Virus record (IMG/VR): IMGVR_UViG_3300045282_000043
Coordinates: 1 to 45,938 of that record
Length of the DNA stretch: 45,938 nucleotides
DNA from: a virus
Strand: one strand, 5' to 3'
The translations under genes and the position numbers were made by a program. Below, one piece after another: positions 10,415 through 19,179 of this stretch (its first letter is position 1; every line of letters begins with the position of its first letter). The notes beneath the pieces were generated by a model, which was not told where the DNA came from, did not search any database, and saw only the letters and a program-made list of their open reading frames with translations.

Positions 10415-10585
10415 ATGAAATCTTACAAACTGACTGTGTTCATCGAAATTGATGATTACAATCTAAATGCTCCATCACTGGAGACGTGTAAAGACTATGT
10501 GATTGATTCACTAAACACTCCAGACAACGATCATTTTGGTATTAAGAAAATTGAATGTCAAGCTGAAGAAGTGGAGAATTTCTAA
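10415..10585 (+). CDS. Hypothetical protein (56 aa)
   Basis: A GTG at 10403 lies inside the ribosome site itself, so ATG 10415 is preferred. The beginning KSYKLTVFIEIDDYN resembles the beta start of the preceding gene product, so the two may be diverged duplicates. It ends one base into the next gene. Function is unknown. Confidence 0.5.
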   Translation: MKSYKLTVFIEIDDYNLNAPSLETCKDYVIDSLNTPDNDHFGIKKIECQAEEVENF

Positions 10586-11142
10586 TGTGTATGCTGGGCG
10601 AACTACTTGAACCAAAACTATTAACTGAAAAACCTGTAATAGGTTATAGAGGATGGTATATTAAAAATGTAAAAGAAGATGGTTATGAGTTATTTCCATT
10701 AAATAAACAATTAGATATTCCATTTAATAAAGATATAACAAAGGCAATTTTGTGTAGATATGATGAAAATACTCACTTCTTAGAACATGAATGTGGCTTA
10801 TATAGCTACTACAACTACTACTACTACTACAACAACAATAACTACTACAACTACTACAACTACTACTACTACAACAACTACAACAACTACTACAACTACA
10901 ACAACTACAACAACTACTACAACTACTATGTTGCCGGAAAAATTCAACATAGTGGAAAAATTGCACATCACAAATTAGGTTATCGTTCAACACTTGGTAA
11001 GCCAATACTATTAGTCAAATTAACTCCCAAGGAAGAATTAGATAAGAATTTTCAGAAATTTCTAGAACATTTCAATACAGTAGTGCAGAGAACAGCAGAT
11101 TATTACGGATGTGAAACAATCTATCATGAGGATTTCAAATGA
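10585..11142 (+). CDS. Phage protein with an expanded Tyr/Asn-repeat loop (185 aa)
   Basis: Residues 1-72 (GYRGWYIKN, AILCRYDEN, HECGLYSY) and 116-185 (VAGKIQHSGKIAHHKLGYRST) look like the two halves of one conserved small phage domain whose function is unknown. Between them residues 75-115 are only Tyr and Asn, encoded by a TAC/AAC microsatellite. The repeat sits in the turn between CGLY and VAGK, so the fold may tolerate it. The ribosome site GGAG is clear, and the stop overlaps the next start as ATGA. The tract may be a slippage-prone, prion-like or binding segment. Confidence 0.65.
   Translation: MCMLGELLEPKLLTEKPVIGYRGWYIKNVKEDGYELFPLNKQLDIPFNKDITKAILCRYDENTHFLEHECGLYSYYNYYYYYNNNNYYNYYNYYYYNNYNNYYNYNNYNNYYNYYVAGKIQHSGKIAHHKLGYRSTLGKPILLVKLTPKEELDKNFQKFLEHFNTVVQRTADYYGCETIYHEDFK
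10807..10929 (+). repeat. TAC/AAC trinucleotide microsatellite
   Basis: Forty-one consecutive codons are TAC or AAC apart from one AAT (10837) and a terminal TAT (10927). Only the first codon base varies (T or A). Order is irregular, not a higher-order repeat. The period of three keeps the reading frame open on gain or loss of units. Confidence 0.95.
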
Positions 11143-11750
11143 ATACAAATTTGAAGGATATAAATTTTGGTTTCAACACTTTTTGCGGACCGTCTGTAAT
11201 GAGTGCTTTAACAGGCAAATCAACAGATGAGTGTGCGGCTGTAATTTCAGCCGTTAGCGGTCGACAAGAAATCAGAGCCGTTAGCACCGCACATCTTATA
11301 GAAGCATTCAGAAGGCTTAGATTCGATATGAAACAGATAGATAAGATGGGTTATAGTCTATTCTCTAATCTATCTTATCTATCGCGTAGCGATGGTATGT
11401 ATATTGTAATGGTTCCTAAGCATGTAGTTGCTATTGAAGTAAGAGAGAATCAGATTTGGTTAGTAGATAATCACAGTAAACAACCTGTCGATGCCTCTGC
11501 AAGTGCAAGACTCACACAGAAATGTGAAGCAGTCTACAAGATTATAGAAAGACCAAGACCAATATTTATTGAAACTATCATTAGAGTAATTAATAATTAC
11601 GATAGTTACATCAGTATTGAAGCTATTGATAGATATGAGAATGCTGATGATGTACGTAGGAATCTCGGACGATTCACATTCAAAGATAGAAACGAACTCA
11701 CGAAGATTGTCAAAGAATTTCAACAATTTACACAGGTTGGAGAGAAGTAA
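11139..11750 (+). CDS. Papain-fold/C39-like cysteine peptidase-like protein (203 aa)
   Basis: The N-terminus NTFCGPSVMSALTG has the Cys16-Gly-Pro pattern of C39-like and related papain-fold peptidases. His95 in KHVVAIE and Asp110-Asn111 in LVDNHSKQP fit the His and Asp/Asn positions. Residues 140-203 form a helical appendage. A papain-like fold is fairly likely. Activity could be protease, amidase or transglutaminase-like, or lost. No signal peptide is present, so it acts in the cytoplasm unless exported by another route. It is coupled to the Tyr/Asn-repeat gene by ATGA. Confidence 0.55.
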   Translation: MNTNLKDINFGFNTFCGPSVMSALTGKSTDECAAVISAVSGRQEIRAVSTAHLIEAFRRLRFDMKQIDKMGYSLFSNLSYLSRSDGMYIVMVPKHVVAIEVRENQIWLVDNHSKQPVDASASARLTQKCEAVYKIIERPRPIFIETIIRVINNYDSYISIEAIDRYENADDVRRNLGRFTFKDRNELTKIVKEFQQFTQVGEK

Positions 11751-16481: not shown

Positions 16482-16702
16482 TGCCTTCACATCAGGAACG
16501 AGTAAAAGAGAATTACAAAGATATTATTGTACACAAATATATAGTAGAAATCTTTATGAATGAAACTGATTCTATCTTATTACATGATGTTTTATTTGTT
16601 GCCTTCGTTTCTGATATTTGTAAGATAACTAGATTATTTGATGAACCAATATTTAATTTAAATGAAGTTCACAAAATAGATATTAAACTCCAGAAAAGCT
16701 AA
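16481..16702 (+). CDS. Hypothetical protein (73 aa)
   Basis: Not recognised. ATG 16481 is used; a GTG immediately before it is possible. The protein is hydrophobic in the middle (SILLHDVLFVAFVSDI) but too short and mixed to call a membrane protein. The stop overlaps the polymerase start by one base. Confidence 0.5.
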   Translation: MPSHQERVKENYKDIIVHKYIVEIFMNETDSILLHDVLFVAFVSDICKITRLFDEPIFNLNEVHKIDIKLQKS

Positions 16703-19179
16703 TGCCAGTTTATGTACCCGGCATCGGCTCCGTCACTCCACAGCTTCTAATCGTTGGGGAAGCACCTGGAAAATATGAAGATGAAACAGGTATTCCATTC
16801 GTTGGACCAGCTGGTAAAATTCTTGATGATTGTTTATTTAAGGCTGGAATACGGCGCTCTGATACTTATATTACTAATGTTATCAAGTATAGACCTCCTC
16901 TCAACGATCTCAAAAAGTTACATCTCATTGGCGTTAGCATCGACGACTCGATACGAGAGCTTTGGGATAACGAGATTAATAAACTTCATCCTAATTGCAT
17001 TTTGGCTGTTGGCGATCTGGCATTACAGGCAGTATGTGGTGTTACTGGTATTCTTAACTATCGTGGCTCTATTCTTACAGCTAGAGACGGAATAACAAAG
17101 GTTGTAGCAACTATTCATCCAGCAGCGTTGTTTAGTCATGGAGCTACAGAGGACTCCGACGCTAAAGGTGGATTGAGTTGGGTTTGGTTGAAGGTAATAG
17201 AAGCAGATATTATTCGAGCCGCTGAGGAATCATTAACTAAGACTATAATTCTTCCAGATAGAACTCTATCGATAGCCCACAACAGTTTAGATGCTCATAG
17301 GTTCTTTCGTGAATATTCATCACTCGACAAAGCAGCTGTTGATATTGAGTCTATCAATTGCGTACCTGTCTGTGTGGGTTTCGCTTTCAACAAACATCAC
17401 GCTATCTCAATACCTCTCTTACGTAATATTGGTTCTCATATTCTTACTGATATGAGTGACAATGAACTCGACGAATGTTGGAGAATGATTGATGAACAAC
17501 TCAGACGAGTTGGAATTATTGGACACAATTTCATGTATGATGAATACAAATTATCACTTATTGGATATGAATGTCCATCTGTTATTAGTGACACCCTCAT
17601 TAAAACTAGAGTTATCTTTCCTGAGCTCCCCGATAAAAGACTCTGTGTCGTTAGTTCTCTCTGGACCAGAGAACCGTATTATAAAGACGATGGAAAAGAG
17701 TTCAAAATTGGAAAGATTAAATTTGATAAATTTCTTGAATACAATGCTAGAGACTGTGCTGTTGAATTTGAAGTAGATGAAGCACAAGAGGCTGACTTAG
17801 ATGATCTAAGTGAGAAGTTTTCGGTGCCGCTACGATCCTATTACTATGATTATATGATGAAGAAGCATAAGTTATATTTGAAATTTCAGATGACAGGTAA
17901 GAGAGTTGATGTTGCTAGAAAGAGAGAATTATTAATCAAATACACAGAGATGGCTAGAGTAGTTCACGAGCGAGTCTGCGAGCGCGTGGGTGATGATATA
18001 AATGTTAAATCATATCCACAAGTATTCAATTTGTTATATAAAATCATGAAGTTTAAAGTTAGAAAGAGAGACCCAACCAGTGAAGATACCATTGTCTCCT
18101 TATTGGGTTCTTGTAAGAAAAAAGAATACAAACAGATCTTACAAGATCTTCTCGAAGAGCGTAGAATTAGAGATCAAAAATCTAGACAGATCTCTTTCCA
18201 TCCTGACTATGATGGAAGATGCAAATCAGCTTACAATATCTCAGCGACTGAAACTTGCAGGAGTTCTACTGGCATTCTTAAAAAGCCGCTCCGTCCAATC
18301 AAAATCGGTTTGGCGGACCATACTATTTCGGCGCATGGAAGATTAGGAAAAGATATTAAATCAATGTTTATTAAAGATGATGGAATGGTTATCCTAGCGG
18401 CTGATGCAAGTCAATGTCAAGCAAGAATTGTTGCAGTTCTCAGTGAAGATTGGGAATTGTTAGAAGCCTTCGATAAAGTCGATATACATAGACGAACGGC
18501 TGGATTGATATTTGGCTATACAAGTAAGTTAGAATTATCAGCAGATTTTAAACATCCAATAGTAGATAATTTAGCTAAAGATGGTCCAGAAAGATATACA
18601 GGTAAAACAACTAGACATGCTGGAAATTTTGATATGAAGAAGCATACTTTTATGATTAATTTTAATACTAATGCTCAGAAATATGAAATTCCTATGGATA
18701 TATCAGAATGGAGAGCTGGAGCAATGTTAGAATTATTTCACTCAGCTTCACCGAAACTTTCTTCTATCTTTTGGAGGGATATAAAAGATGCCATTGACTC
18801 TACTCGTGTTCTTATTGATCCTTTTGGTGGCGTTCGTATATTTAATGGTCGTATGGATGATCATTTATATGGAGAAGCGTATGCAAACATCCCACAAAGA
18901 ACAGAAGCTCACCTAGTTCAAAAAGCAGCATTAGCTATTGATGAAGAGTTAAAGGGTGATAAGGGATTTCTTTGGAGTCAGGAGAAACACGATGCTTTGT
19001 ATTTGCAAGCACCAGAAAACAATTGGATGCCGTACGCGAAACTCATGAAAAGAGAAATGGAAAGGCCAATAGATTTTCGGACATATTGCACGCTAAAGAG
19101 AGATTATGATCTTATAATCCCTTGTGAGTTGGAAATTAGTCACACAAATTATGCAGAGTTTGAGAAAATTAAATTATGA
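16702..19179 (+). CDS. Family A DNA polymerase fused to uracil-DNA glycosylase
   Basis: An 825-residue replicative polymerase. Residues 1-180 are a family 4/5-type UDG domain (GEAPG at 19-23, GIPFVGPAG, HPAAL at 139). The 3'-5' exonuclease follows (DIE at 214-216, IIGHNFMYDE, YNARD). In the PolA domain, motif A is DASQCQAR (D568), motif B is R631...K635...H639...F643, and motif C has HD (D764). Gln replaces the usual Glu of motif A, and motif C lacks the Glu after HD. SPO1-type polymerases, as I recall, share the UDG fusion. The UDG part could exclude or excise uracil during synthesis. Confidence 0.9.
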   Translation: MPVYVPGIGSVTPQLLIVGEAPGKYEDETGIPFVGPAGKILDDCLFKAGIRRSDTYITNVIKYRPPLNDLKKLHLIGVSIDDSIRELWDNEINKLHPNCILAVGDLALQAVCGVTGILNYRGSILTARDGITKVVATIHPAALFSHGATEDSDAKGGLSWVWLKVIEADIIRAAEESLTKTIILPDRTLSIAHNSLDAHRFFREYSSLDKAAVDIESINCVPVCVGFAFNKHHAISIPLLRNIGSHILTDMSDNELDECWRMIDEQLRRVGIIGHNFMYDEYKLSLIGYECPSVISDTLIKTRVIFPELPDKRLCVVSSLWTREPYYKDDGKEFKIGKIKFDKFLEYNARDCAVEFEVDEAQEADLDDLSEKFSVPLRSYYYDYMMKKHKLYLKFQMTGKRVDVARKRELLIKYTEMARVVHERVCERVGDDINVKSYPQVFNLLYKIMKFKVRKRDPTSEDTIVSLLGSCKKKEYKQILQDLLEERRIRDQKSRQISFHPDYDGRCKSAYNISATETCRSSTGILKKPLRPIKIGLADHTISAHGRLGKDIKSMFIKDDGMVILAADASQCQARIVAVLSEDWELLEAFDKVDIHRRTAGLIFGYTSKLELSADFKHPIVDNLAKDGPERYTGKTTRHAGNFDMKKHTFMINFNTNAQKYEIPMDISEWRAGAMLELFHSASPKLSSIFWRDIKDAIDSTRVLIDPFGGVRIFNGRMDDHLYGEAYANIPQRTEAHLVQKAALAIDEELKGDKGFLWSQEKHDALYLQAPENNWMPYAKLMKREMERPIDFRTYCTLKRDYDLIIPCELEISHTNYAEFEKIKL

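What the first reader, a model, noticed from the sequence alone, without database searches (positions are those of the whole stretch)
10807..10929. Coding TAC/AAC microsatellite making a 41-residue Tyr/Asn tract
Long trinucleotide repeats are rare in phage coding DNA. Here the repeat interrupts an otherwise conserved-looking small domain at a turn, keeps frame and gives a sticky, prion-like tract. Strand slippage would make its length vary between virions, a possible route to diversity or aggregation-based function.
Basis: partly seen in the sequence, partly recalled or inferred. Interest (0 to 1): 0.65.

Follow-up and report, generated by a model that had tools for sequence, protein, structure and literature searches.

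The report
Phage protein with rewritten tyrosine-asparagine loop
A group of uncultured ~45-kb phages all carry one small protein with a 25-64-residue tyrosine/asparagine loop in the same place, whose DNA spelling is repeatedly rewritten by in-frame insertions and deletions while its composition is kept, which points to a selected 'sticky' loop rather than a junk repeat.

Summary
It is neither an artefact nor a lone microsatellite. Counting the window, 22 tract genes were found in about 22 uncultured phage contigs. All carry a mixed Tyr/Asn tract at the same point of the same domain, including those found by a search that did not ask for the tract. Tract-free relatives (about 40 phage proteins; profile match 98.9%, E=1.3e-17) mostly have an ordinary 12-56-residue insert there, so this is a natural insertion site. 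Within each tract the first codon base is about half T, half A. The third base is almost uniformly C or uniformly T, switches about seven times on a poorly resolved tree, and always agrees between Tyr and Asn codons. Among the models I simulated, only in-frame indels at any base phase, about 100-fold more frequent than point mutation, plus selection keeping both residues, reproduced this. Two phages differing at 4 of 4,213 flanking bases differ by a 12-base tract deletion. Self-association through Tyr 'stickers' is the likeliest function but is untested. The domain matches no Pfam, NCBIfam, PHROG or solved structure.

The parts
10585..11142 (+). Gene of the tract protein, 185 aa, member of an unnamed phage superfamily (GYRxW ... 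GLYS ... GKI ... GYRS)
   Evidence: profile match to tract-free relatives 98.9%, E=1.3e-17
10585..10806 (+). Domain part before the tract: MC start, GYRGW strand, ECGLYS strand
   Evidence: Alignments A2 and A6; AlphaFold2 model
10807..10929 (+). Tyr/Asn tract, 41 residues (24 Tyr, 17 Asn), residues 75-115, mostly predicted disordered
   Evidence: pLDDT below 50 at residues 74-110
10930..11142 (+). Domain part after the tract: two long strands with GKIxxxG and GYRS, C-terminal helix, stop codon
8416..9990 (+). SNF2-type helicase, the gene most often found near the tract gene in related phages (20 of 21 loci); context, not part of the tract system as such
   Evidence: Pfam SNF2-rel_dom E=2.7e-32; neighbourhoods

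Best explanation
The gene encodes a small phage protein, probably cytosolic and probably early (both inferred from its place among replication and recombination genes), of a widespread but unnamed superfamily ('GYRxW...GIYA...WGxVxxHxxGYRAE'). In one group of ~45-kb phages the natural insert site of the domain is filled by a disordered Tyr/Asn loop. SHOWN: every member of the group found has the loop; its composition (about half Tyr, half Asn, short runs, 25-64 residues) is kept while its order, length and codon spelling are not. STRONGLY INFERRED: the DNA of the loop is rewritten by frequent in-frame block duplications and deletions at any base phase (slippage or unequal recombination), which spread one third-codon base through the tract, while selection on the protein keeps both Tyr and Asn. 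INFERRED, less sure: what is selected is multivalent weak stickiness (Tyr as sticker, Asn as spacer) that lets the protein self-associate or coat a partner, as in disordered regions where composition rather than sequence matters.
For: All loci from a search not requiring the tract have it, or its remnant at a contig end. 427 Tyr and 406 Asn over all tracts. Third base nearly all C in 11 tracts and all T in 11, against about 10% C in the rest of these genes; type differs between sister genes and between two paralogues of one contig; about seven changes on the tree, no clustering, Tyr and Asn codons agree in 21 of 21. Only the sense frame gives the same residues in both codon types; the next frame is poly-Thr in the C type and poly-Ile in the T type. 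Simulation needs selection for both residues plus any-phase indels about 100 times point mutation. Direct 12-base in-frame deletion between two phages with 4 differences in 4,213 bases. More alternation of Tyr and Asn than random order gives, combined z=3.8, and internal duplications. Evenly mixed tracts occur only in this family in the sample. Tract disordered in the model. Tyr-based multivalency drives phase separation of the RNA polymerase II tail (PMC10519987).
Against: No experiment on the protein. The fold has no solved relative, so the domain's job is unknown. A loop selected only for solubility or length could look similar. The simulation is a simple model; a hypothetical first-base A-T flipping mutator would mimic the selection term. 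The tree is poorly resolved (3 of 18 branches well supported), and the deletion pair involves a contig that starts inside the tract.
Confidence: 0.6

Rival explanations
1. The tract is a neutral trinucleotide repeat that expands in a tolerant loop and has no function.
For: It lies at a naturally variable insert site, and in-frame indels in a loop would be tolerated. Third-base uniformity is typical of slippage.
Against: Every group member has it. Neutral simulations make the first codon base uniform too (diversity 0.06 at R=100 against 0.52 observed). Other phage repeats of this kind are pure Asn runs.
Confidence: 0.12
2. A targeted diversification system rewrites the loop to vary a binding surface, as diversity-generating retroelements do.
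For: First codon base highly variable, other bases nearly constant; sequence differs in every phage.
Against: No reverse transcriptase (PF00078) in nine records of the group. Retroelement mutagenesis of AAY codons would vary the second base too, but position 2 has diversity 0.05. Length varies.
Confidence: 0.06
3. The tract acts at RNA or translation level, for example as a run of NAY codons read by queuosine-modified tRNAs, slowing or sensing translation.
For: Tyr, Asn, His and Asp, the residues of queuosine tRNAs (own knowledge), make up most of the tract.
Against: Ser 15 and Cys 4 are about as frequent as His 17 and Asp 10 once mutation type is considered. Codon type C or T differs between paralogues in one genome. 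No TGT or QueC gene in nine records.
Confidence: 0.05
4. Selection keeps the loop for binding a specific host or phage partner (or nucleic acid) through Tyr side chains, not for self-association.
For: Tyr-rich low-complexity regions are enriched in DNA-binding and DNA-processing proteins (PMC6821194); the gene lies among replication and recombination genes.
Against: No conserved order of residues that a specific site would need. No positive charge in the tract.
Confidence: 0.2
5. The repeat is an assembly artefact.
For: Three related contigs begin inside the tract (L070, L146, L147), a sign that assemblers struggle there.
Against: The same feature in contigs from many metagenomes, always in frame and in the same domain position.
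Confidence: 0.02

Closest known systems
Unnamed phage protein superfamily 'GYRxW...CGIYA...LWGxVxEHxxGYRAE' (e.g. Streptomyces phage BRock gp216, APC46446.1; two tandem genes of uncultured huge phage LR756511.1; about 40 IMG/VR proteins)
   Same: Same domain order and motifs; insert at the same point; profile match 98.9%, E=1.3e-17; BRock also found by structure comparison
   Different: Their insert is 12-56 ordinary residues, at most 31% Tyr+Asn; most lack the MC start
Prion-like or Q/N-rich domains, including those catalogued in phages (Tetz and Tetz 2017, PMC5694896)
   Same: Asn-rich, Tyr-rich, low complexity, predicted disordered
   Different: No Gln; inserted inside a folded domain; no aggregation test done; PLAAC not run here
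Tyr sticker regions of phase-separating proteins (e.g. RNA polymerase II C-terminal domain, PMC10519987)
   Same: Many evenly spread Tyr residues in a disordered stretch
   Different: No fixed heptad; Asn as the only spacer; short; phase separation not shown
In-frame trinucleotide repeats of eukaryotic genes (polyQ, polyN)
   Same: Codon uniformity and in-frame length change, as expected of slippage
   Different: Two residues kept mixed instead of a pure run; whole codon type switches between sister genes
Diversity-generating retroelement target genes
   Same: A codon position varies strongly in a loop of a conserved domain
   Different: No reverse transcriptase found, second base constant, variable length

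Membership tests
Unnamed phage GYRxW/GYRAE superfamily | Shared motifs: GYRxW strand, G-[IVL]-Y-[AS] strand, insert, GxVxxxGxxxxHxxGYR[AS]E strands | tested here: met
   hhalign 98.9%, E=1.3e-17 over 84 columns; 97.1%, E=6.5e-11 with BRock and LR756511 proteins
Unnamed phage GYRxW/GYRAE superfamily | Same fold | tested here: inconclusive
   BFVD search returns BRock gp216 (prob 0.77, E=0.086) and an uncultured phage protein (prob 0.94, E=0.023); no solved structure
Prion-like domain | Asn/Gln-rich disordered stretch | tested here: met
   17 of 41 Asn, no Gln; pLDDT below 50
Prion-like domain | Self-propagating or amyloid assembly | not testable with these tools
   Needs purified protein or a reporter assay
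Diversity-generating retroelement target | Reverse transcriptase and template repeat nearby | tested here: not met
   No PF00078 match in nine records; template repeat not searched
Diversity-generating retroelement target | Adenine-directed variation at first and second codon bases | tested here: not met
   Diversity 0.52 at base 1, 0.05 at base 2
Phase-variable contingency microsatellite | Length changes switch the reading frame on and off | tested here: not met
   All tracts stay in frame; the observed deletion is 12 bases

The most novel reading that the evidence does not exclude
A phage protein that forms condensates or fibres through a Tyr/Asn sticker loop whose DNA is continually rewritten by in-frame recombination while selection holds only composition, giving a family of natural sequence-scrambled variants of one phase-separating loop.
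Probability: 0.3. Interest if true: 0.75.

Novelty: new variant of a known kind. Interest (0 to 1): 0.57.

Why it matters
It is a natural experiment in which evolution has scrambled the order, length and codons of a disordered loop many times while keeping its composition, inside one folded domain. That separates selection on protein composition from repeat mutation unusually cleanly, in phages, where aromatic and Asn residues are reported to be under-represented in low-complexity regions (PMC6821194). It also defines a phage protein superfamily for which Pfam, NCBIfam and PHROGs gave no match. If the loop drives self-assembly, the 22 variants are a ready test set for sticker-spacer rules.

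Tried and rejected
Pfam, PHROGs and NCBIfam scans of the protein with and without the tract: nothing significant. tblastn of tract-removed versions against phages and plasmids: no convincing hit; the Streptomyces plasmid hit lay outside the annotated frame and the Gordonia GRU1 hit ran antisense to the annotated gene. Bacterial genome scans with A1 and A3: none. The tract-free superfamily was first a lead from memory; a consensus written from it found LR756511.1 and BRock weakly, and it was then tested with profiles and a DNA motif scan. Foldseek against PDB with two models: nothing. PDB sequence search with the superfamily profile: nothing. Codon-phased duplication alone was rejected because it does not make Tyr and Asn codons agree in third base. 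Retroelement, queuosine and frame-switching ideas were rejected as listed. Paper searches found no earlier description (open-access library only).

Full report
CHECK. The window is an IMG/VR virus record of 45,938 bases. ORF 10585-11142 encodes 185 residues and contains 41 consecutive Tyr/Asn codons at 10807-10929, exactly the stated coordinates. Chance cannot make this, and no other run of 6 or more such codons was found in the window. The codons end in C in 39 of 41 cases, although the phage's larger genes use TAT and AAT in about 84% of cases.

RELATIVES WITH THE TRACT. Most long-ORF cases were pure Asn runs; the evenly mixed Tyr/Asn tracts all lay in proteins with the same flanks as the window's. 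A second pattern and a profile search whose patterns lay outside the tract extended the set to 22 tract genes (one row there is the near-copy L146, and a 23rd, broken copy lies in L145). In one search every relative had the tract or, at a contig end, its remnant (L146, L147). The proteins share a near-invariant MC start, invariant G20 and R22, G-x-Y-x-Y before the tract, and G and GxR positions after it.

RELATIVES WITHOUT THE TRACT. A consensus recalled from memory found two tandem genes in LR756511.1 and, weakly, BRock gp216. Profile comparison confirmed the link (97.1%). A DNA motif for WGx(V/I)xxHxxGYR(A/S)E gave 48 contig stretches, about 40 of them tract-free. An alignment of twelve of these matches the tract family at 98.9%, E=1.3e-17. 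Most carry 12-56 ordinary residues at the insert point, with at most 31% Tyr+Asn (the boundary rule mis-cut two short cases). So the Tyr/Asn loop is a group-specific filling of a general insert site.

HOW THE TRACT EVOLVES. Across tracts there are 427 Tyr and 406 Asn; the commonest others are His 17, Ser 15, Asp 10 and Cys 4, mostly the single-transition neighbours of TAY and AAY. The third base is nearly uniform per tract: C in 11 and T in 11, the latter without exception. The two paralogues of contig L070 differ (28 of 28 C against 0 of 42). On a tree of the tract-removed proteins the type changes seven times with no clustering, and Tyr and Asn codons agree in all 21 tracts. The tree is poorly resolved; well-supported branches alone force three changes. 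Diversity is 0.52, 0.05 and 0.04 at codon positions 1 to 3. Tracts show internal block duplications and alternate more than random order would.

SIMULATION. In a simple model of one tract, point mutation plus block duplication or deletion in multiples of three, the observed pattern appears only when indels may begin at any base (joining the first base of one codon to the rest of another), outnumber point mutations about 100 to 1, and a constraint keeps Tyr between 33 and 67% of the Tyr+Asn residues (0.49, 0.03, 0.06; concordance 1.00). Codon-phased indels leave Tyr and Asn codons independent (0.51-0.57); without the constraint position 1 also becomes uniform (0.06). The constraint stands in for selection on the protein. 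A first-base A-T flipping mutator would be an alternative, but I know of none.

DIRECT CHANGE. Contigs IMGVR_UViG_3300009012_000002 (L136) and 3300010329_000002 (L146) differ at 4 of 4,213 bases after the tract, and one 12-base deletion explains their tract difference. The second contig starts inside the tract, so an assembly error cannot be fully excluded. Three of about 21 related contigs start inside the tract; by my rough estimate about 0.15 would be expected, which fits a site that assemblers cannot pass, through repeats or population variants.

STRUCTURE AND CONTEXT. AlphaFold2 gives most of the domain pLDDT 70-93 in the window protein (tract mostly below 50) and a mean of 82 for the better-aligned L134 protein: strands, an insert starting with a weakly predicted helix, two long strands, and a C-terminal helix. 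No solved structure resembles it; BFVD returns an uncultured phage protein and BRock gp216. The gene lies among replication and recombination genes, with an SNF2 helicase within the examined span in 20 of 21 loci; its place in the cluster varies and two contigs have a second copy.

READING. Composition kept, order free, codon type irrelevant and loop disordered: this is what one expects of a disordered region selected for bulk stickiness. I therefore favour Tyr-driven self-association or coating of a partner (about 0.45 for self-association alone), with the rewriting-plus-selection account at about 0.8. The molecular role of the domain is unknown, and no experiment bears on it.

Noticed in passing
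window 10585-10590 and all full-length tract relatives; L182, L184: Met-Cys start kept in all full-length tract proteins and in the LR756511 and L184 relatives but not in most of the superfamily; after Met removal Cys would be N-terminal, perhaps catalytic or modified.
   Followed up: no
L070 2-313 and 1780-2316; L145 2574-2873 and 4001-4558: Second copies of the tract gene. In L070 the two copies use opposite codon types (all C, all T). In L145 one copy ends early, just after its tract.
   Followed up: partly
window 10787-10978 (+): The tract also opens an overlapping frame of 63 codons that reads mostly poly-Thr. In T-type relatives the same frame would be poly-Ile, so it is unlikely to be a gene.
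   Followed up: partly
window 11139-11750 (+): Next gene has an FCGPSVMSAL motif like papain-type or C39 cysteine peptidases; it has relatives in 10 of the 21 loci.
   Followed up: no
window 16702-19179 (+): Family A DNA polymerase fused to an N-terminal uracil-DNA glycosylase domain.
   Followed up: no
L123 3254-5383; L134 3011-5152: The SNF2 helicase of some relatives has an extra N-terminal part with an HEVAHA motif, like a SprT-type metallopeptidase, that the window's copy lacks.
   Followed up: no
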